45,867 nucleotides of DNA from Xanthomonas cucurbitae (lineage in GTDB: Bacteria > Pseudomonadota > Gammaproteobacteria > Xanthomonadales > Xanthomonadaceae): assembly GCF_002939885.1 (NCBI RefSeq), contig NZ_MDED01000015.1, positions 59,236 to 105,102 of the forward strand, in the 5' to 3' direction. The notes beneath the pieces are model-generated. The model did not search any database, had not been told where the DNA came from, and saw only the letters and a list, made by a program, of their open reading frames with translations. This document shows positions 26,362 to 36,028 of this stretch, one piece after another. The stretch's first letter is position 1, and each line of letters opens with the position of its first letter. The position numbers were made by a program, and so were the translations under genes.

Positions 26362-29298
26362 ATGAACAAGCTGTCTCGCAGTACCCATCACACCCCATTG
26401 GCCGCCGCGCTGGCGGCGGCGCTTGCACTGGTGGCTGCACATGCTGCCGCGCAGGATGCGGGCACCGGCAACGGCGTCACCGAGCTGGACAAGATCCTGG
26501 TCAAGGGCGTGCGCGGCGCGCAGGCCGAGGCGATCGAGAACAAGCGCACCGCCGCGCAGATTATCGATTCGATCTCGGCTGAAGACATCGGCAAGCTGCC
26601 CGACGTCACCATCACCGACTCGCTGCAGCGGGTGCCGGGGGTGCAGATCCGGCGCTCGGCCGGCGAGGGCTCGCAGCTCAACATTCGTGGCATGCCGCAG
26701 GTGCAGACCACCATGAACGGCGAAATGTACCTGAGTGCCGGTGGCGGCGACCAGTACGGCCAGCCCAACATCGGCCGCGCGCAGCCGGATTTCGTCGACA
26801 TTCCGCCGACGCTGTTCAGCGGTGTGGATGTCATCAAGTCACCCACTGCCGCGGATCTGGATGGCGGCATCAGCGGCACCGTCTCGCTGAAGACCCGTCG
26901 CCCGTTCGAATTGCCGGAAGGCTGGACCTTCAGCGGCCAGGCCGAGGGGTCGTACGGCGATCGCGTGCAGGAACCCAATCAGCTGTATTCGGGGTTGGCC
27001 AGCTTCCGCACCGAGCGCTGGGGCGCGTTGCTGGCGGTGTCCTACTCCGATGCCACGCTGGAGAACAAGCACCCCAGCGTGTATTCCAATGGCGCGCAGA
27101 AGTCCACCGAGCAGAACGTGGGCTTCGACTTCAACGGCGACGGCCGCATCGGTAGCAACACCGATCCGTCCAACCTGCCGCGCGATTATTTCTACAACTG
27201 GGTGGCCACCGAGCTGGACAACCGCAGCACCGATCGCCAGCGTACCGGCATCAATGGCTCGTTCCAGTTCAATATCAACGACTCCTGGACGGTGCTGGCC
27301 GATGCGGCCTACACCAAGCTCGAAGATCACGATACCTCGGTGGCCGCGCAGCTGCATACCGGCTGGGCGACCAATCAGTTGCAGCCGGGATCGGTGGTCG
27401 ATCCCAACGGCGTGCTCGAGTACGGCCAATTCCGCTACAACCGCTTCCAGGCGCACTCCATGGCCGGCGTGGCTGATTCGGACGCGCTCAATACCAATCT
27501 GGAATTGCGCTACGACGACGGCGGCCCGTTCCGTGCCTCGTTCCGCTGGGTGCATGGCGATGCGCAGCGCACCTACGACGAAGCCCGCGCCGATGCGGTG
27601 GTGACGCGCGGCGACCGCATCACCCGCGCCGGTGGCGTCAGCCAATGGGCCAACGCCAACGGTTTGCCGGTGGTGGATGCCTCGGTGGATTTCCGCGGTA
27701 CCTATCCGGCGGTCAATCTTGGTACCGACGTGTCCAATCCGGACAACTGGCAGCTGATGTCCACCTGGGCACAGGGCAACAAGATCGAAGCCACGATGGA
27801 TGCGTTCCGCGCCGACGGCACGTTCGAGTTCGACGATGGCGTTGTTCGCGGCTTCCAGTTCGGCATCCGTTACGGCGAGCGCGATTTCAAACTGGACACC
27901 TATCGCTACCTGTCGCCGGTCTCCACCGCGTGTGCCGATCCGAACCGTTCGCTGTATTACTTCAAGGATCCGCTGATCGTCGACACCTGCAGCGGCGTGT
28001 CCGAGGCACGCCTGCTGCCATTCAATACCATCCCCGGCTATTGGGCCTACTTCAACGACTTCGATCCGCTCAAGGTCAACGGCCTGGGGCCGCAGGGGCT
28101 GCCGGCGATCAACCCGCAGGTGATGAAAGACCCGGTCGCCTATCTCAACAGCCTGTATCCGGGCAACGTGGCCTACCAGCAGGCCGCCGATTCCTATCAG
28201 GTCACCGAGAAGAGCAGCGCGGCGTACTTCCTCGCCAATCTGGAGGGTGGCATTGGTAGCCGCGTGCCGTGGACGGCCAATATCGGCGCGCGCATCGTGC
28301 AGACCAAGCTGGCGATCGATCAATACCTGAGCAGTGGCAATGTCTTTATCGGCAACGTCGAATGGAACGGCGTGAGTCCTGCGATCGGCACCAATCGCCT
28401 GAACCGGCAATACACCGACGTGTTGCCCAGTGCCAACCTGTCGCTGGACATCACCGACGCGCAGAAGCTGCGCTTTGCCTATAACAAGGCTGTGGCACGT
28501 CAGGACCTGCCCGATCTCGGTCGTGGCCTGGTGAGTTTCTACGCCGTCAACGGTACGCCGCCGCGCAATCCCGCATTGCCATCGGATGCGGTGCTGTTCC
28601 TCAATGGCCGCTCCGGCAATCCGGATCTGGATCCGTACCGCGCCACCAACTACAACGCCTCGTGGGAATGGTATTTCGCCGATGCCTCGCTGCTCAGCGT
28701 GGGTGCCTTCCTGATCGACGTGAAGTCCTTCCCCACCACCGTCACCAACATCGAGCCACTGCCCGATGCCGATGGCGTGGCACGCCTGGGCGGCCCGGTG
28801 GAGCGCATCGTCAATGGTGGTGGCGGCAAGATCAAGGGATTCGAGATCGGTTATCAGCAGGCCTTCGATTTCCTGCCAGGCTGGCTCAGCGGTTTCGGCA
28901 CCAACCTCAACTACACGTTCTCCGATGCCGACACCGACAACACCGATATCCAGGGAAATACACTGCCGATCGGCGATAATTCCAGGCACCAGGCCAACGC
29001 GGTGCTGTGGTATCAGAAAGACAGATTGCAGGCGCGTGTGGCCTATAACTGGCGCAGCAAGCGCTTCAGCCAGATCAATAGCGGCGCATGGGGCGACAAG
29101 CTGGCAATCTGGAACGACGACGTGGGCTACCTGGATGCGTCGCTCAGCTACGACGTCAACGATCACCTCACGCTGTACGCCCAGGCCACCAACCTGACCG
29201 GGCAAAGCGAGCGTCGTTACGCGCAGTGGAGCAACCACTACTACGACCAGAACATCTTCGAGCGTCGTTACTACGCTGGCCTACGCCTGCGTTTCTGA
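26362..29298 (+). CDS. TonB-dependent outer-membrane receptor
   Basis: The 978-residue protein starts at an ATG with GGGAGGGGA just upstream and has a signal peptide ending AAAQ. The plug domain follows: DKILVKGVRGAQ as the likely TonB-box region, then DSLQRVPGVQIRR and GSQLNIRGMPQVQTTMNGE. A beta-barrel fills the rest, closing with LRLRF and a C-terminal Phe. It resembles the large carbohydrate-type Xanthomonas receptors (oar/CUT-type) rather than siderophore receptors. With GH2 upstream and GH97 nearby it probably imports oligosaccharides released by these enzymes. Ligand is inferred from context. Confidence 0.9.
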   Translation: MNKLSRSTHHTPLAAALAAALALVAAHAAAQDAGTGNGVTELDKILVKGVRGAQAEAIENKRTAAQIIDSISAEDIGKLPDVTITDSLQRVPGVQIRRSAGEGSQLNIRGMPQVQTTMNGEMYLSAGGGDQYGQPNIGRAQPDFVDIPPTLFSGVDVIKSPTAADLDGGISGTVSLKTRRPFELPEGWTFSGQAEGSYGDRVQEPNQLYSGLASFRTERWGALLAVSYSDATLENKHPSVYSNGAQKSTEQNVGFDFNGDGRIGSNTDPSNLPRDYFYNWVATELDNRSTDRQRTGINGSFQFNINDSWTVLADAAYTKLEDHDTSVAAQLHTGWATNQLQPGSVVDPNGVLEYGQFRYNRFQAHSMAGVADSDALNTNLELRYDDGGPFRASFRWVHGDAQRTYDEARADAVVTRGDRITRAGGVSQWANANGLPVVDASVDFRGTYPAVNLGTDVSNPDNWQLMSTWAQGNKIEATMDAFRADGTFEFDDGVVRGFQFGIRYGERDFKLDTYRYLSPVSTACADPNRSLYYFKDPLIVDTCSGVSEARLLPFNTIPGYWAYFNDFDPLKVNGLGPQGLPAINPQVMKDPVAYLNSLYPGNVAYQQAADSYQVTEKSSAAYFLANLEGGIGSRVPWTANIGARIVQTKLAIDQYLSSGNVFIGNVEWNGVSPAIGTNRLNRQYTDVLPSANLSLDITDAQKLRFAYNKAVARQDLPDLGRGLVSFYAVNGTPPRNPALPSDAVLFLNGRSGNPDLDPYRATNYNASWEWYFADASLLSVGAFLIDVKSFPTTVTNIEPLPDADGVARLGGPVERIVNGGGGKIKGFEIGYQQAFDFLPGWLSGFGTNLNYTFSDADTDNTDIQGNTLPIGDNSRHQANAVLWYQKDRLQARVAYNWRSKRFSQINSGAWGDKLAIWNDDVGYLDASLSYDVNDHLTLYAQATNLTGQSERRYAQWSNHYYDQNIFERRYYAGLRLRF

Positions 29299-29487: not shown

Positions 29488-29987
29488 GTGCGGAATGGCA
29501 CGTCCGTTTGTGGCGTAATGCCCGCAGTCGAAATGTCGCCATGGACAGTCTCTGGATCTGTGTGCAAACGCAATGTTTGACGATTGCTTATGCCAGGTAT
29601 GCGGCGTAGTTTCCGCCTGGCGAACACGATCACCCGTTCGCAGGCACAGCATCGATGCTGCTCGCTCAATCGCTCCCTGGAGACACTCCGAACATTACGC
29701 AGGCTGCCGTCGCGAAGATAATGTCGTCGCGATATCCAGGCCTTCGACGCGTCTGAGGTGACAGGCAAGTTTTCAGGAATCGGCAGCCATCCCAGGCTGC
29801 GCGTTGTCCTGGGCGCTGCCGACATAACTTCCAGAAATTCTCTTCGGCCGTGCGTCGATGGAGCGTTTTCGGCCGGCCTCGGAAACGATCCGACGAGTGT
29901 TTTGAACGACAAGGCAAGGCTGCCGAAAGGACGCGCCGCAATCCAACGTTCGTACCAACCATCCGAAGATCAATAAAGGTGAAGGTC

Positions 29988-31670
29988 ATGACCAGGAAAG
30001 GCATTCGTCGCAATCTCAAGCGCTCGCTGGCGTTTTCGCTATTGGCAGTGAATCCGTTCGTGATCGGGGCGGTGGGCGCGCAAGCCCATGTCGACAATCC
30101 GTTCGTGGGTGCGAGCGGGTATGTCAATCCCGACTACGCCAAGAAGGTCGATGCATCGATTGCAAAGGTGAAAGGTGCGACGCTGAAGGCCCAGATGGGC
30201 GTGGTCAAGACCTATCCCACTGCGGTGTGGCTGGATCGCATTGCCGCGATCAGCGGCGGCTCCCAGAACGCCGGGCGGCTGGGGTTGCGCGGCCACCTGG
30301 ATGCGGCCTTGGCACAGAAAAAGCCCAATATGCCGATCACCGCCAGCTTCGTCATCTACAACCTGCCGGGCCGCGATTGTCATGCACTTGCTTCCAATGG
30401 CGAGCTGCCGCTGACGCCGGCAGCGCTGGACCGTTACAAGAAAGAGTATATCGACGTCATTGCCGCGATCTTCGCCGATCCGAAGTACAAGGATATCCGC
30501 ATCGTCAATGTGATCGAGCCGGACAGCTTGCCGAATCTGGTCACCAATTTGAACGACATGCGCTGCGCGCTGGCCAGCTCCATCGGTATTTACGAGGAGG
30601 GCATCAAATACGCCATCAACAAGCTGCATGCCGTTTCCAATACCTACAACTATCTGGATATCGGGCACTCCGGCTGGTTGGGTTGGGACAGTAATCGTGG
30701 TCCATCGATTTCGCTGTATACCCGGGTGGTGCAGGGCACCAGTTCTGGCCTTGCGAGCGTGGATGGGTTCGTCACCAATACCGCCAATACCACGCCGTTG
30801 AACGAACCGAATCTCCCCAATCCCGATTTGAGCATCAACGGGCAGCCGATCAAGTCGTCGAAATACTACGAATGGAACCCATATTTCGACGAGACCGATT
30901 TTACCCAGGCCTTGTACAATGGCTTCGTCAGCGCGGGCTGGCCCAGCACCATCGGCTTCATCATCGATACGGGCCGCAATGGTTGGGGTGGGCCGAATCG
31001 TCCGAGTGGCGCGTTCGGGAACGACGTCACCAGCTACGTCAATTCCGGCCGCATCGATCGCCGTCTGCATCGTGGCAACTGGTGCAATCAGAAGGGCGCC
31101 GGCATTGGCGAGCTGCCCACGGCGGCGCCGGGTCCGCATCTGGATGCCTACGCCTGGGTCAAGCCACCGGGCGAATCCGATGGTTCCAGCTCACTCATCG
31201 CGAACAACGAGGGCAAGGGCTTCGACCGCATGTGCGATCCCACCTACACCACGGCCGATGGCGTGTTGACCGGTGCCTTCCCCAGCGCACCGATCTCCGG
31301 CGCCTGGTTCCACAACCAATTCGTGGAGCTGGTGAACAATGCGTACCCGGTGATCGCCACGGCCAGTGCGGCAACAGTGCGGCCTGCGCCGATCGCAGTG
31401 CCTGAGGCAACGCGTGGTCTCATCGCCACCGTCGGCGATCGCCGCGTCAAGCTGAGTTGGTCGCCGGTGATCGGTGCGAGCAGCTACACGGTGCAGCGTC
31501 GCAGTGGTGCCGGCAGTGCGTTCACGACGGTGGCGTCCAATGTCGCTGGGGCTTCGTTCGTCGATCAGTGGGTCAATAATGTTGCCAGCTACGAGTATGT
31601 GGTCAGCGCCAACAATGCGGCAGGAATGGGTACGCCGTCGGCTGTGGTGCGCACCAAACCGAACAGGTGA
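29988..31670 (+). CDS. cbsA: Secreted GH6 cellobiohydrolase CbsA with C-terminal FN3 domain
   Basis: The 560-residue protein starts at an ATG preceded by AAAGGTGAAGG and has a signal peptide ending near GAVGAQA. The GH6 catalytic domain spans ~35-460 with YNLPGRDCHALASNGE (D130, catalytic acid), VIEPDSLPNLVTN (D179) and WVKPPGESDGSS (D398), matching the three key aspartates of the family. The C-terminal ~85 residues form a fibronectin type III domain (KLSWSPVIGASSYTVQRR). It should release cellobiose from cellulose chain ends after type II secretion. CbsA is known as a determinant of vascular pathogenesis in Xanthomonas and is intact here. It is followed by a strong hairpin. Confidence 0.92.
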   Translation: MTRKGIRRNLKRSLAFSLLAVNPFVIGAVGAQAHVDNPFVGASGYVNPDYAKKVDASIAKVKGATLKAQMGVVKTYPTAVWLDRIAAISGGSQNAGRLGLRGHLDAALAQKKPNMPITASFVIYNLPGRDCHALASNGELPLTPAALDRYKKEYIDVIAAIFADPKYKDIRIVNVIEPDSLPNLVTNLNDMRCALASSIGIYEEGIKYAINKLHAVSNTYNYLDIGHSGWLGWDSNRGPSISLYTRVVQGTSSGLASVDGFVTNTANTTPLNEPNLPNPDLSINGQPIKSSKYYEWNPYFDETDFTQALYNGFVSAGWPSTIGFIIDTGRNGWGGPNRPSGAFGNDVTSYVNSGRIDRRLHRGNWCNQKGAGIGELPTAAPGPHLDAYAWVKPPGESDGSSSLIANNEGKGFDRMCDPTYTTADGVLTGAFPSAPISGAWFHNQFVELVNNAYPVIATASAATVRPAPIAVPEATRGLIATVGDRRVKLSWSPVIGASSYTVQRRSGAGSAFTTVASNVAGASFVDQWVNNVASYEYVVSANNAAGMGTPSAVVRTKPNR

Positions 31671-32010
31671 TGCGATCGGCTGGCGCCGGCATGCCGGTGC
31701 CAGCCGATGTGCGTGGCAGCTTGTGACTCCTGCGGTATCGCTGCGCTGAACGCATGTCGCATGAAAACCGAGGGTGGCTACCTGGCCACCTGCCTGCCAT
31801 GGTTGCTTTCAGGTGACACGAAGTTACGTGCTGCAGAACGAAAATGACTGCATTACGGTTTCTGCACTCTGACGAATCTGTGCGCGCACGCAATGTTCGT
31901 CGCTGAGTGCCGGGCGTATGTTAGCGTGGCGGGCGCGACCATTGCCGCTCGTGTGACACGTGATTGATTGTGCGCATCGCCCATCAGGGTAAACCACTCC
32001 CCAGAATAGG
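31671..32010. other. 340-bp gap upstream of the small peptide gene
   Basis: Begins with the cbsA terminator and continues with AT-richer sequence and no recognised gene. A half CRP/Clp-like TGTGA lies at 31952-31956. The peptide-gene promoter is expected here but cannot be placed. Confidence 0.4.
31675..31708 (+). terminator. Long hairpin after cbsA
   Basis: Near-perfect 17-bp inverted repeat (31675-31691 with 31692-31708; one G-T pair), so it folds with a small opened loop. It starts 4 bp past the stop. No T-run. Confidence 0.7.
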
Positions 32011-32100
32011 ATGTCGCTCATGAAAATGCTGTTCTCGCTCAAGAACCTGCTCGCGTCCAACAAAAGCCTGAAGTCCTACTCCTGGTACATCTGGTACTGA
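32011..32100 (+). CDS. Candidate RiPP precursor peptide ending SYSWYIWY
   Basis: A 29-codon frame from ATG 32011, or 26 codons from ATG 32020. The second start is favoured because AGGA (32008-32011) lies 8 bp before it. The leader MKMLFSLKNLLASNKSLK is short, cationic and probably helical; the C-terminus SYSWYIWY has five aromatic residues and ends at the stop. Layout and size recall the cittilin precursor, whose C-terminal YIYY is crosslinked by a P450; here the last four are YIWY. A P450 gene begins 116 bp downstream on the same strand. Expected product: leader removal and P450-made aryl crosslinks between Trp/Tyr side chains. Real expression is unproven; a frame this short can occur by chance, but composition and context argue for a gene. 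Confidence 0.6.
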   Translation: MSLMKMLFSLKNLLASNKSLKSYSWYIWY

Positions 32101-32216
32101 CCGCGCTGACCAGGGCGGCCGAAAACGCCTTGTATCCAGCGTGCTATTGGTAGTGTTCGCCCGCGCGAGGTGAGTGTTTTGCCGGACGCGGGTGTTATCG
32201 AAGCCGAGTGATCTCC

Positions 32217-33257
32217 ATGTCTTTATCCAGTGCCGCTGAATGCGGCAGGCAGACTGTGTTCGCGCCGCGCCTGTTCGCGCTCCTGCGCGAGCACATGGGC
32301 AAGGAGATGTTTCGGCTGGACGGAGATACCGTTGGTGTTGCCGGGCCGACGCTGACACATCGGTTGCTCGATGCGCGTCCGGCGACCGAGGGCGAGCGGC
32401 CGACCTTCAAGCCGTTACAGGGGCGATCGATCGCCCGCACGCATGCCTCCAAACTGATGCAAGCCATCGGGCGCGATGTACGCGAGGCATTGAAGCGCCC
32501 CATCGCGGCAGATGTGGACCTGGCAGGCCCGTAGCCGCATGTGGGCCATGTGTACTTGCGCGATCTGTTGCTGGGTGGCGATCCACTGCGGTTACGCGTG
32601 TTGATGGACCGCACGCTGGAGCTGACTCCCAAGCTGACCTGGGCGGTCATCGCTGCCGGTGCGATCACGCCACTCAGCTTGCAGGCCAATGCGTCAGCGC
32701 TTGCGACATTCACTGCTGCTGCAGACGGCTACCAGGCGCGTCGCTTCGCGATGGGCTTGTATCGACGAACTGCCGTGCCGGTGTGCTTCACCATTTCCAC
32801 GCTGGTCGCCAATGCGCTTTGGCTGGGATCGCCCTTTGATCCTGGGAGTTCCAGCCGGAATATCGTCTACGAATCGCTACGCCTGTTGCCGCCCTCCTGG
32901 AATATCTTGCGCACTGCATCGCCGGAATATCCATTGCTCGATTCCCGCATCGGCGTGCAGGACGATGTGTTGGTCCTGCCCTTGTTGAGTCACCGCGATC
33001 CTGCGTTATGGGAATCTCCCGAGGTATTTCGTCCTGAGCGTTGGGACCAGCTGGATCCAGATGATCTGCCCGGCTATCTCCCGTTCGGTCATGCCTCGGA
33101 GCGTTGTTGGGGCAGGCACATGGTGATGCCCCTGGCCGAACAGTTGTTGGATAGGCTGCGCGCTCAGGGATTGGCTGTCAGCCCACGGCAACGCCGGGCG
33201 CAGGTACCGTTGGCAGGTTTGCTAGGTGTGTCAGAGGTTGACGTCGTGCGCCGTTAG
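32217..33257 (+). pseudogene. Short cytochrome P450 with one in-frame TAG
   Basis: One frame runs from ATG 32217 to 33257 (346 codons before the final stop) except for TAG at 32532-32534 after VDLAGP. Past it the frame resumes at once with PHVGHVYLRDLLLG. P450 features: the ExxR motif YESLR (E219, R222) and the heme loop PFGHASERCWGRH with C297 as heme ligand. It is shorter than the usual ~400 residues and the I-helix AGxxT motif is not seen, so the I-helix region is atypical. Next to the peptide gene at 32011-32100, a peptide-crosslinking P450 is the best guess. The single nonsense codon suggests recent inactivation, unless it is a sequence error or is suppressed; fragments could also be made from GTG 32541. 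Confidence 0.75.
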
Positions 33258-33394
33258 TGCAGGTTGCTTGGTTGCACGGTGACCGCGCTGCATCGGCAAA
33301 ATGGATGATCCCAACGGCGCTTCTGTCTGCCCGATGCGCCTGCGCGTGCAGCAGCCACGGTCACCTCAACGGCCAAAGGACGCGCGCCAATTCA

Positions 33395-34447
33395 TCAGCC
33401 TTTCGTTGGCGCAGCCGTCGAACCGCGCTTGACCACGGTGTATTTCATGATCTGGTGCACGCCGGCTGCGGCAACGCCCTTGCGCCGCTGGCGAATGGCG
33501 TCGGCCAGCAACGAGACGGCGGCGCGCCCCATCGCCGCCACCGGTTGATGCACGGTGGTGAGTTCGGGCCAGATGGTGGTGGCCACCGGCGTGTCGTCGA
33601 AACCGGCCACCGAGACGTCCTCGGGCACGCGCAGCCCCAGCCCGTGCGCAACCGCGACGGTGGCGGCGGCCATGTCGTCGTTGCTGCAAAAGATGGCGGT
33701 GGGTGGCTGCGGCCGGGCGAGCAGGCCGTGTGCAGCGATCAGGCCGGAGCGGTAGGTGAACAGGCCGTCTGCGATCAGTTCATCGACAATCGCCAGCCCT
33801 GCCGCCTGCAGGCTGTCGAGGTAGCCACTGGCACGCAATGCGCTGGGCGTGTGGTTCGGGTCGCCCTTGACCAGGGCGATGCGCCGGTGCCCGAGCTCGA
33901 TCAGGTGGCCCACGATGGCACGCGCAGCCTGGTAATCGTCGATGCGTACCGAACTGATCTGCGCCATCGGCGCGCCGCTGGCCACGGCCACCACGGGAAT
34001 GCCGCGTGCATCCAGCTCGGCAATGGTCTGGCGCGAATCGCACAGCGGCGGCGGCAGGATCACGCCATCCACGCCGGCCGCCAGCAGGCGCTCGGTGGCA
34101 GCGCGCTGGCTGCGGATGGCACCGCATTTTTCCACCAGCACCTGGCTGCCATTGAGGCTGCTCTGCTCGAGCAGCCCCAGCATGAATTGATTGAGATAGG
34201 CCGCGCTGGGGTTGCTGTACAACACGCCGATCCGCAGCAGGCCGCTGGTGCGCAACGAGCGGCCGGCCAGATTGGGCCGGTAGCCCAGTGCCTGCACCGA
34301 TGCTTCCACCCGTGCCCGCATGTCCTGGCCGACATGCGGGTGGCGGTTGATGACGCGCGAGGCGGTCATCGGCGACACCCCGGCGTGCTTGGCCACGTCC
34401 AGCAGGGTCGCCGCATTGTTCGCACTGCGTTGCCGCCTGGCCACCAT
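33395..34447 (-). CDS. LacI-family transcriptional regulator
   Basis: The 350-residue protein has an N-terminal LacI helix-turn-helix (TLLDVAKHAGVSPMTASRVINRHPHV, residues ~15-40), the hinge YRPNLAGRSLRTS and a periplasmic-binding-protein-like effector domain (RIGVLYSNPSAAYLNQF, GVDGVILPPPL, SVAGFDDTPVA, TTVHQPVAAMGRAA). It should repress genes until a sugar ligand binds. Possible targets are the palindromes at 22601-22612 and 18683-18692 in the glycosidase island. It lies 51 bp downstream of the M28 peptidase gene on the same strand. The effector sugar is unknown. Confidence 0.93.
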   Translation of the reverse strand: MVARRQRSANNAATLLDVAKHAGVSPMTASRVINRHPHVGQDMRARVEASVQALGYRPNLAGRSLRTSGLLRIGVLYSNPSAAYLNQFMLGLLEQSSLNGSQVLVEKCGAIRSQRAATERLLAAGVDGVILPPPLCDSRQTIAELDARGIPVVAVASGAPMAQISSVRIDDYQAARAIVGHLIELGHRRIALVKGDPNHTPSALRASGYLDSLQAAGLAIVDELIADGLFTYRSGLIAAHGLLARPQPPTAIFCSNDDMAAATVAVAHGLGLRVPEDVSVAGFDDTPVATTIWPELTTVHQPVAAMGRAAVSLLADAIRQRRKGVAAAGVHQIMKYTVVKRGSTAAPTKG

Positions 34448-34498: not shown

Positions 34499-35917
34499 TT
34501 ACTCGTTCGGCGGCTGCACGGCGCTGGCGCGGCTGCCGAAATTGCCATCGGCTTCGGCCGCCAGATACGCGAACACGGTGTAGGCGGCCACGTTCTGCGC
34601 AAGCGCTTTCGGGTCGATCTTGTCCAGGGTGTCGTCGGCGGTGTGGTGCAGGTCGAAGTAGTCGGTGCCATCCTGCGCCAGCCATCCCCAGGCGCCACCC
34701 TTGGCGGAAATCGGCCCGACATCCGGGCCGGGGCCGCCCTTGCTCGGCTCATACGCGATGCCCAGCGGCGCAAGCACGTCGGCGATCTGCTTGGTCGCTG
34801 CCCGCGAGTCCTCTGGCGCAGCCGCGCCGGTATTGAATGCATAGATGCGCCCGGCACCGAAGTCGCTCTCTGCGCCGATCTGATGCAGCGCCATGTCCTT
34901 GGCATCGTTGCCGTGCGCCGCGGCATACGCCTTGCCGCCGTACAAGCCCTGTTCTTCGTTGGCGAAGGCCACCACGCGGATGCTGCGCTTGGGCGCCTGC
35001 TTGAGTTGCCCGATCAGGTGGCCTGCCGCCATGGTGATCGCCACGCCGGCGCCGTCGTCGATCGCGCCGGTGCCCAGATCCCATGAATCCAGGTGCCCGC
35101 CGATCACCACCACTTCCTTGGGCTTGCTGCGGCCGGTGATCTCGCCGATCACGTTGTACGAAGTCGCGGTGCCGTCCCAGCCGCAATCCAGTGCCAGACG
35201 GATGCGTGTGGCACCCAAGGCAGCAAGGCGGGCGAGCTGGTTGGCATCGGGCACCGACAAGGCCGCTGCCGGCACCGGGGTGAGTCCTTCGTCGAACCGG
35301 GTGATGCCGGTATGCGGCACGCGGTGCGAATCGGTGCCGGCCGAGCGCATCACGAATCCAATCGCGCCCTTGCGGATCGCTTCCGACGGCCCCTTGCTGC
35401 GCACCGCGCCGCCATTGCCGTAATCCTTGCCGTCGCGCGCCTTGACCATCTGGTAGTCGACGAAGGCGATCTTGCCGGCCAGCGAGCCGGCAGGCGCGGC
35501 CTGCAACGCGGCAAGATTCTCAAAGCGCACCACCTCGCCTTCAACACTGCCGCCCGGGCTGCCGCCCAACGCGGTGATGGTCAGCGGTTGCGCGTGCGCG
35601 CCGAGCACGGCGGCGTGTTCGCTACGACGTTCCCACTTGGGAAAGGTCACCGGCTCGGTCCACACCTTGTCAAAGCCCAGCGACTGGAACTTGGCCTTGG
35701 CCCAGGCCACGGCACGCGGGTCTGCCTCGCTACCGGCGAGGCGAGGCCCCACCTCGGTGGTCAGCGATTGCACCACCGCAAAGCCGGTGTTGTCGGCCAG
35801 CGCCTGCTCGCGCAGCTGCGCGGCGGTGCGCAGTGCGCTGTCGGGGATGGTGGTCTGCGCAGCAAATGCGCACGAGCAGGCGAGCAGGGCGGAGATGGCA
35901 ACGGCGAGGCGACGCAT
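34499..35917 (-). CDS. Exported M28-family zinc peptidase with PA domain
   Basis: The 472-residue protein begins MRRLAVAISALLACSCAFAAQ, a signal peptide; I chose this ATG, with GGAG upstream, over a TTG 15 bp earlier. A protease-associated (PA) insert lies at ~115-245. The M28 co-catalytic zinc residues are visible in VVIGGHLDSWDLGTGAIDDGAGVA (His, Asp), FANEEQGLYGG (Glu-Glu), ESDFG and LHHTADDT (His). Likely an aminopeptidase or carboxypeptidase (plasma glutamate carboxypeptidase-like) in the periplasm or outside. Same strand as lacI, 51 bp upstream, and perhaps cotranscribed. Confidence 0.9.
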   Translation of the reverse strand: MRRLAVAISALLACSCAFAAQTTIPDSALRTAAQLREQALADNTGFAVVQSLTTEVGPRLAGSEADPRAVAWAKAKFQSLGFDKVWTEPVTFPKWERRSEHAAVLGAHAQPLTITALGGSPGGSVEGEVVRFENLAALQAAPAGSLAGKIAFVDYQMVKARDGKDYGNGGAVRSKGPSEAIRKGAIGFVMRSAGTDSHRVPHTGITRFDEGLTPVPAAALSVPDANQLARLAALGATRIRLALDCGWDGTATSYNVIGEITGRSKPKEVVVIGGHLDSWDLGTGAIDDGAGVAITMAAGHLIGQLKQAPKRSIRVVAFANEEQGLYGGKAYAAAHGNDAKDMALHQIGAESDFGAGRIYAFNTGAAAPEDSRAATKQIADVLAPLGIAYEPSKGGPGPDVGPISAKGGAWGWLAQDGTDYFDLHHTADDTLDKIDPKALAQNVAAYTVFAYLAAEADGNFGSRASAVQPPNE

Positions 35918-36028
35918 GCAGGGCGGCTCCAAAACGACAAGGCAGACCCCGAGCTTATCAGCGCAAGGTCCCCCGTCTGCGTGCGAAAGGTCATCCTTCT
36001 GCGCGAAGCGCGCAATGGATGCGCCTGG

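What the first reader, a model, noticed from the sequence alone, without database searches (positions are those of the whole stretch)
32011..33257. Candidate P450-crosslinked RiPP locus: tiny aromatic precursor plus P450
Seen: a 26-29 residue ORF ending SYSWYIWY with a well-spaced AGGA, followed 116 bp later on the same strand by a short P450 with ExxR and Cys heme loop. Known: cittilin (C-terminal YIYY) and biarylitides are made from tiny precursors by a dedicated P450 that joins aromatic side chains. Inferred: YIWY is a Trp-containing variant core, giving a Tyr/Trp-crosslinked tetrapeptide or a longer core. No methyltransferase or protease is adjacent, so it would be a minimal two-gene system. 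It sits in a virulence-related island next to cbsA, and known cittilin bears on CsrA/RsmA regulation, so a signalling or regulatory role is conceivable.
Basis: partly seen in the sequence, partly recalled or inferred. Interest (0 to 1): 0.88.

Follow-up and report, generated by a model that had tools for sequence, protein, structure and literature searches.

The report
Broken tryptorubin-type peptide gene pair
A Xanthomonas bacterium carries a known kind of two-gene recipe for a tiny peptide that would be knitted into rings, but the gene for the enzyme predicted to knit it is interrupted by a stop codon here, so this strain likely does not make it, and in several relatives the same pair is damaged or missing.

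Summary
The small ORF and the P450 are real, but the family is not cittilin/biarylitide. The 26-residue precursor (32020-32100) scores 48.6 bits (cut-off 33) against NCBIfam 'tryptorubin family RiPP precursor' and has the KSLK leader motif and xWxxWx core (SWYIWY) of atropopeptides (PMC11450843). Its P450 relatives in 80 named loci (best 80 of 118) all have such a precursor just upstream, 77 by strict pattern and 3 by eye; one is Amycolatopsis xylanica, the amyxirubin source. Xanthomonas atropopeptide clusters are already published. In this genome the P450 frame is cut by TAG at 32532-32534, so the peptide is probably not matured. Of 11 genus genomes (35 searched) with the precursor, 8 have an open P450 and 3 a disrupted one; 2 more keep P450 remnants. 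The pair sits in a fixed slot beside cbsA; all four presence/absence combinations occur. New here: recurrent decay with one deletion scar, a conserved hairpin between the genes, and an M28 peptidase that stays when the pair is absent, which weakens a published protease association. A disabled new member of a known kind.

The parts
32008..32011 (+). AGGA ribosome-binding site of the precursor gene
   Evidence: read directly; 8 nt before ATG 32020
32020..32100 (+). atropopeptide precursor gene, 26 aa: MKMLFSLKNLLASNKSLKSYSWYIWY (29 aa if started at 32011)
   Evidence: NF038372 48.6 bits against cut-off 33; in 11 of 35 genus genomes
32062..32073 (+). KSLK leader motif
   Evidence: read directly; motif defined in PMC11450843
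32080..32097 (+). predicted core hexapeptide SWYIWY (xWxxWx)
   Evidence: pattern of PMC11450843; SWYIWY is the core of 3 of the 77 strictly matched precursors of 80 named loci
32159..32193 (+). conserved hairpin between precursor and P450, 7 bp + 3x3 internal loop + 5 bp
   Evidence: present at the locus in 10 of 35 genus genomes; 22 of 35 columns invariant against 9 of 81 in the rest of the spacer
32217..32534 (+). N-terminal piece of the P450 frame, 105 codons, ended by TAG 32532-32534
   Evidence: homology
32535..33257 (+). C-terminal piece of the P450 frame with ExxR 32871-32882 and Cys loop 33084-33116
   Evidence: Pfam PF00067 3e-13; one search gives 1 TAG inside the full-length match
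29850..31670 (+). GH6 gene taken to be cbsA, left neighbour (context)
   Evidence: PF01341 E 6.4e-102
33395..34447 (-). LacI-type regulator, right neighbour fixed across most of the genus (context)
   Evidence: family name recalled from sequence, not from a family search
34499..35932 (-). M28-type aminopeptidase, fixed neighbour present with or without the pair (context)
   Evidence: 32 of 35 genomes; family name recalled from sequence, not from a family search

Best explanation
The locus is a two-gene atropopeptide (tryptorubin-family) pair of Xanthomonas in which the precursor gene is intact, while the P450 predicted to crosslink its SWYIWY core is cut by an in-frame stop codon, so this strain likely makes no mature peptide. 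Where the P450 is open, the leader with its KSLK motif would bind the P450, which would join the aromatic side chains of the core (established for Streptomyces relatives, inferred here), and a general cellular protease would trim the leader. The pair is inferred to be ancestral in this chromosomal slot, under purifying selection, and lost or disabled many times. The hairpin between the genes probably sets how much P450 is made relative to precursor (inferred).
For: Precursor model hit. Of 80 named loci kept (best 80 of 118 relatives), 80 have a related precursor upstream: 77 match the strict pattern, 3 are variants read by eye. 419 P450 homologues at E <= 1e-5 among the 7996 candidates scored. 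TAG in frame. State in 35 genomes: 8 open with precursor, 3 disrupted with precursor, 2 remnants, 22 without (4 of these 22 have only distant P450 matches, 29-36%). Pairwise dN/dS of G000 against the open P450s G006, G034, G026, G032 is 0.099-0.129, as among open copies, so the break is probably recent. TBDR, cbsA, LacI and M28 beside it have no stops in this genome, which speaks against a poor assembly. One deletion scar in G005.
Against: No product, expression or enzyme data. The stop could be a sequencing error in a 181-contig draft; a near-identical open copy exists (P0002, 5 other residue differences by eye). The P450 and flank trees disagree for G026, so some copies may have moved by recombination rather than descended in place. 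In cbsA-only genomes G013, G017 and G025 only short matches and no clear scar were seen. No CitB or P450Blt sequence was put in a tree.
Confidence: 0.87

Rival explanations
1. The stop codon is a sequencing or assembly error and the strain makes the crosslinked peptide.
For: Draft assembly of 181 contigs; dN/dS of the broken P450 is as low as that of open ones; a near-identical open copy exists.
Against: Four neighbouring genes have no such break in the same contig; other genomes also show disrupted copies.
Confidence: 0.12
2. It is a cittilin- or biarylitide-type pair with a YIWY or WYIWY core.
For: Also a tiny aromatic precursor plus one P450.
Against: Tryptorubin-family model above cut-off; KSLK and xWxxWx present; the P450's relatives carry atropopeptide precursors; biarylitide precursors are five residues (PMC13417212, start of abstract in the listing).
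Confidence: 0.02
3. The precursor peptide has its own function as a linear peptide, so losing the P450 does not matter.
For: 3 of 11 precursor-bearing genomes keep an unbroken precursor beside a disrupted P450.
Against: None of the 11 precursors was without P450 sequence beside it; recent breakage explains it; G014 kept part of the P450 but has no precursor match.
Confidence: 0.04
4. The pair is a passenger of the cbsA presence/absence polymorphism and travels with it.
For: Adjacent to cbsA in 8 of 11 precursor-bearing genomes; PMC7673761 reports that cbsA moved with varying lengths of adjacent sequence (passage).
Against: All four combinations occur; Fisher p 0.14 over 30 genomes and no signal in independent pairs; the pair is in the same slot without cbsA in G024, G033 and G008.
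Confidence: 0.1

Closest known systems
Tryptorubin A/B, amyxirubin and other atropopeptides of Actinomycetota (PMC11450843, PMC12352619)
   Same: Two genes; KSLK leader; xWxxWx hexapeptide core; P450 of the same family, e.g. the A. xylanica locus L104 is 58% identical (best segment) to the query P0001.
   Different: Plant-associated Gram-negative host, P450 disrupted, extra hairpin between the genes, core begins with Ser. SWYIWY also occurs at two Streptomyces loci (L084, L085), so the core is not unique.
[quoted passage not shown]
   Same: Xanthomonas is named as a main host in the first paper; XavA's core WGLYM equals the tail of the X. vasicola core at L036.
   Different: The crosslinks reported there (5 of the 7 precursors) were made by a Streptomyces P450; the paper says no atropopeptide had been reported from Pseudomonadota.
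Cittilin (CitA/CitB) and biarylitides (P450Blt)
   Same: Works alike: one P450 joins aromatic side chains of a ribosomal peptide (partly recalled).
   Different: Different precursor families; not a member.

Membership tests
atropopeptides (tryptorubin family) | KSLK (or RSLK, ESLK, KSRK, KPLK, PSLK) leader motif | tested here: met
   KSLK at residues 15-18 of 26; definition read in PMC11450843
atropopeptides (tryptorubin family) | core xWxxxx with Trp at position 2 | tested here: met
   SWYIWY; xWxxWx subtype as in 76 of the 77 strictly matched of 80 loci
atropopeptides (tryptorubin family) | precursor scores above NCBIfam NF038372 cut-off | tested here: met
   48.6 bits, cut-off 33
atropopeptides (tryptorubin family) | adjacent P450 of the atropopeptide-modifying family | tested here: met
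   no NCBIfam P450 model covers it (best is ApyO, 62-75 bits for four relatives against cut-off 525)
atropopeptides (tryptorubin family) | P450 reading frame open in this genome | tested here: not met
   TAG 32532-32534; open in 8 of 11 precursor-bearing genus genomes. This makes it a predicted inactive locus of the family.
atropopeptides (tryptorubin family) | crosslinked peptide product | not testable with these tools
   needs mass spectrometry
biarylitides | five-residue precursor | tested here: not met
   precursor is 26 aa; definition from the start of the abstract of PMC13417212
biarylitides | P450 grouping with P450Blt | tested here: inconclusive
   8U2M (P450Blt) is not among the 60 PDB sequences shown of 131; no tree with it was made
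cittilins | core ending YIYY or similar (recalled) | tested here: not met
   sequence ends SWYIWY
cittilins | P450 grouping with CitB | not tested
   CitB sequence not obtained

The most novel reading that the evidence does not exclude
The atropopeptide pair is an ancestral Xanthomonas trait that is switched off again and again as lineages change niche: loss and P450 knock-out are adaptive, in the same slot where gain and loss of cbsA changes vascular lifestyle, which would make the slot a two-part lifestyle cassette whose peptide acts inside the plant.
Probability: 0.12. Interest if true: 0.65.

Novelty: new member of a known kind. Interest (0 to 1): 0.34.

Why it matters
PMC12352619 (2025, section 6 read) says no atropopeptide had been reported from Pseudomonadota, and the biological role of the family is open. 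Xanthomonas gives a ready natural experiment: related genomes with the pair open, disabled, reduced to a remnant, or deleted, in one fixed slot. The data also caution that the published protease association in Xanthomonas may reflect a fixed neighbour gene, and add a conserved hairpin worth testing as an expression control.

Tried and rejected
Rejected: cittilin/biarylitide membership (and the membership test). Rejected: linkage of the pair with cbsA, Fisher p 0.14 over 30 genomes and no signal in independent pairs. Not claimed: covariation support for the hairpin; pairing is 98.1% against 31-45% for slid versions, but 41 of 500 shuffles reach the covariation score, 468 of 500 reach the number of pairs changed on both sides, and 6 of 7 outer pairs never vary. 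Folding alone is uneven: in 8 of 10 genomes 0-7 of 300 shuffles fold as well, but 22 in G007 and 51 in G033. Its support is position, near-uniqueness and sequence conservation. A smaller 5' hairpin (31979-31990) is only a lead. No Rfam match in 31600-33400; no sigma-70-like promoter found there (region to 33500). The AlphaFold model of P0001 is middling (mean pLDDT 70) and matches P450 structures at TM about 0.5: P450 fold, nothing finer. PMC10885120 gave only reference-list passages. Rows left out: G008's shorter P450 piece and the G030 remnant from the P450 tree; G009, G018, G019, G028 and G029 from the flank tree (no complete slot). L012 (E 0.65) is taken as a chance match.

Full report
What is there. 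The peptide ORF and the P450-like region exist at the stated place. The plausible precursor is 26 aa from ATG 32020, with AGGA at 32008-32011. It matches NCBIfam NF038372, tryptorubin family RiPP precursor, at 48.6 bits (cut-off 33), from residue 4 of the 29-aa reading. It carries KSLK and ends in SWYIWY.

What family. PMC11450843 (outline, section 5 parts 1-2 of 4 and passages read) defines atropopeptides by KSLK-like leader motifs and an xWxxxx core modified by a dedicated P450, and names Xanthomonas among the main hosts. A scan of named genomes with a P450 alignment found 118 relatives and kept the best 80 as loci. All 80 hold a precursor upstream: 77 by a strict pattern (KSLK-type motif, then xW core, stop), plus L108, L083 and L103 as variants read by eye; L103 has no SLK. 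Cores of the 77: AWYIWY 23, AWYLWY 20, AWYFWY 14, AWYHWY 5, SWYIWY 3, others 12. So both parts of the window locus belong with this family. That tryptorubin A itself has the core AWYIWY is recalled, not from a call.

The P450 is cut. In frame with ATG 32217 a TAG stands at 32532-32534, and the genome search reports 1 TAG inside the match. The N-terminal piece lacks ExxR and the heme Cys; the C-terminal piece lacks about 105 residues. Listed relatives are 313-390 aa, mostly near 346, and a near-identical open copy exists (P0002). Breakage looks recent: dN/dS against four open copies is 0.099-0.129, like that among open copies.

Recurrent decay. Of 35 genus genomes, 11 hold the precursor. With it, the P450 is open in 8 (G006, G007, G024, G026, G031, G032, G033, G034) and disrupted in 3: G000 by a stop; G023 by a frame break near codon 13, which may still allow a late start; G008 by a frameshift, in a contig where neighbouring genes are also broken. 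G014 and G030 keep only P450 remnants. In G005 the spacer after cbsA still matches part of the region upstream of the precursor in relatives and then the region after their P450: a deletion scar of about 1.45 kb; G013, G017 and G025 show only short matches and no clear scar. On a tree of LacI+M28+mscL (32 rows) trace/no trace needs 7 changes and open/not open 6; if only losses are allowed I count 12 events by eye on that tree.

The slot. TBDR - [cbsA] - [pair] - LacI - M28 - mscL. Over the 35: cbsA and pair with precursor 8; cbsA plus P450 fragment 1; cbsA alone 6; pair alone 3; P450 remnant alone 1; neither 11; slot incomplete or absent 5. Six of these genomes have a GH6 gene away from the slot (G008, G009, G021, G027, G030, G033), and G011 a second copy. 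In two named genomes (L037, L038) the pair sits beside LacI-M28-mscL (72-82% identity) but with another left flank, so the position is probably ancestral in the genus. PMC7673761 (passages read) describes repeated gain and loss of cbsA and its effect on vascular lifestyle; the word P450 does not occur in its main text. Association of pair and cbsA in the slot is not significant (Fisher p 0.14, 30 genomes).

Protease. PMC11450843 reports frequent association of proteases with atropopeptide P450s in Xanthomonas. Here an M28-type peptidase lies two genes downstream. It is found in 32 of 35 genomes and beside LacI in all 17 flank-tree genomes without any trace of the pair (in G027 the M28 frame is split). 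It therefore looks like a fixed neighbour rather than part of the pathway. Whether it is the protease they counted was not checked.

Hairpin. A 35-nt stem-loop (32159-32193) lies 20-24 nt before the P450 ATG in 10 genomes. The pattern occurs at the locus in those 10 of 35 genomes, with 1 extra shorter hit in G026; the reversed-pattern control gives 4 hits over the 35. 22 of 35 columns are invariant against 9 of 81 in the rest of the spacer. It is absent by this pattern in G024, F10 and NCPPB 1128, so it is not a general family feature. The role (setting P450 dose) is inferred.

Selection and movement. P450 dN/dS is 0.086-0.197 in 65 of 66 pairs; G033-G008 is 0.42. G026 groups with G034/G006 in the P450 tree but with the G033 side in the flank trees, which suggests recombination.

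Novelty. PMC12352619 (section 6 and passages read) tested seven Pseudomonadota precursors with a Streptomyces P450, five of them modified, and says no atropopeptide was reported from that phylum. Searches for print links of Xanthomonas with atropopeptides, cbsA and P450 RiPPs (listings only beyond the papers named) showed no paper that I could see joining this pair to the cbsA slot; the library holds open-licence papers only.

Noticed in passing
window 32159-32193; same place in 10 genus genomes: Conserved GC-rich hairpin between precursor and P450, nearly unique to the locus, no Rfam match.
   Followed up: partly
window 31979-31990: Small hairpin GCCC-ATCA-GGGC, or CCC-GAAA-GGG in relatives, about 30 nt upstream of the precursor ATG.
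   Followed up: no
L010 and L036 (X. vasicola), P0007: The P450 heme loop reads FGPAAERCWARH instead of FGHASERCWGRH, together with the divergent core SWGLYM; enzyme and core may have changed together.
   Followed up: no
L116 (G026): The P450 groups with G034/G006 while flanking genes group elsewhere: probable within-genus recombination at the slot.
   Followed up: partly
L141 (G011): cbsA is split by about 1 kb of extra sequence after codon 59, and a block of about 6 kb lies between a LacI remnant and LacI; a second GH6 copy is elsewhere.
   Followed up: no
L129 (G005) cbsA-LacI spacer: Deletion scar that keeps part of the upstream region of the lost precursor gene.
   Followed up: yes
window 26839-29238 (-) and 30039-31139 (-): Long open frames antisense to the TBDR and cbsA genes; probably a high-GC codon effect, not genes.
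   Followed up: no
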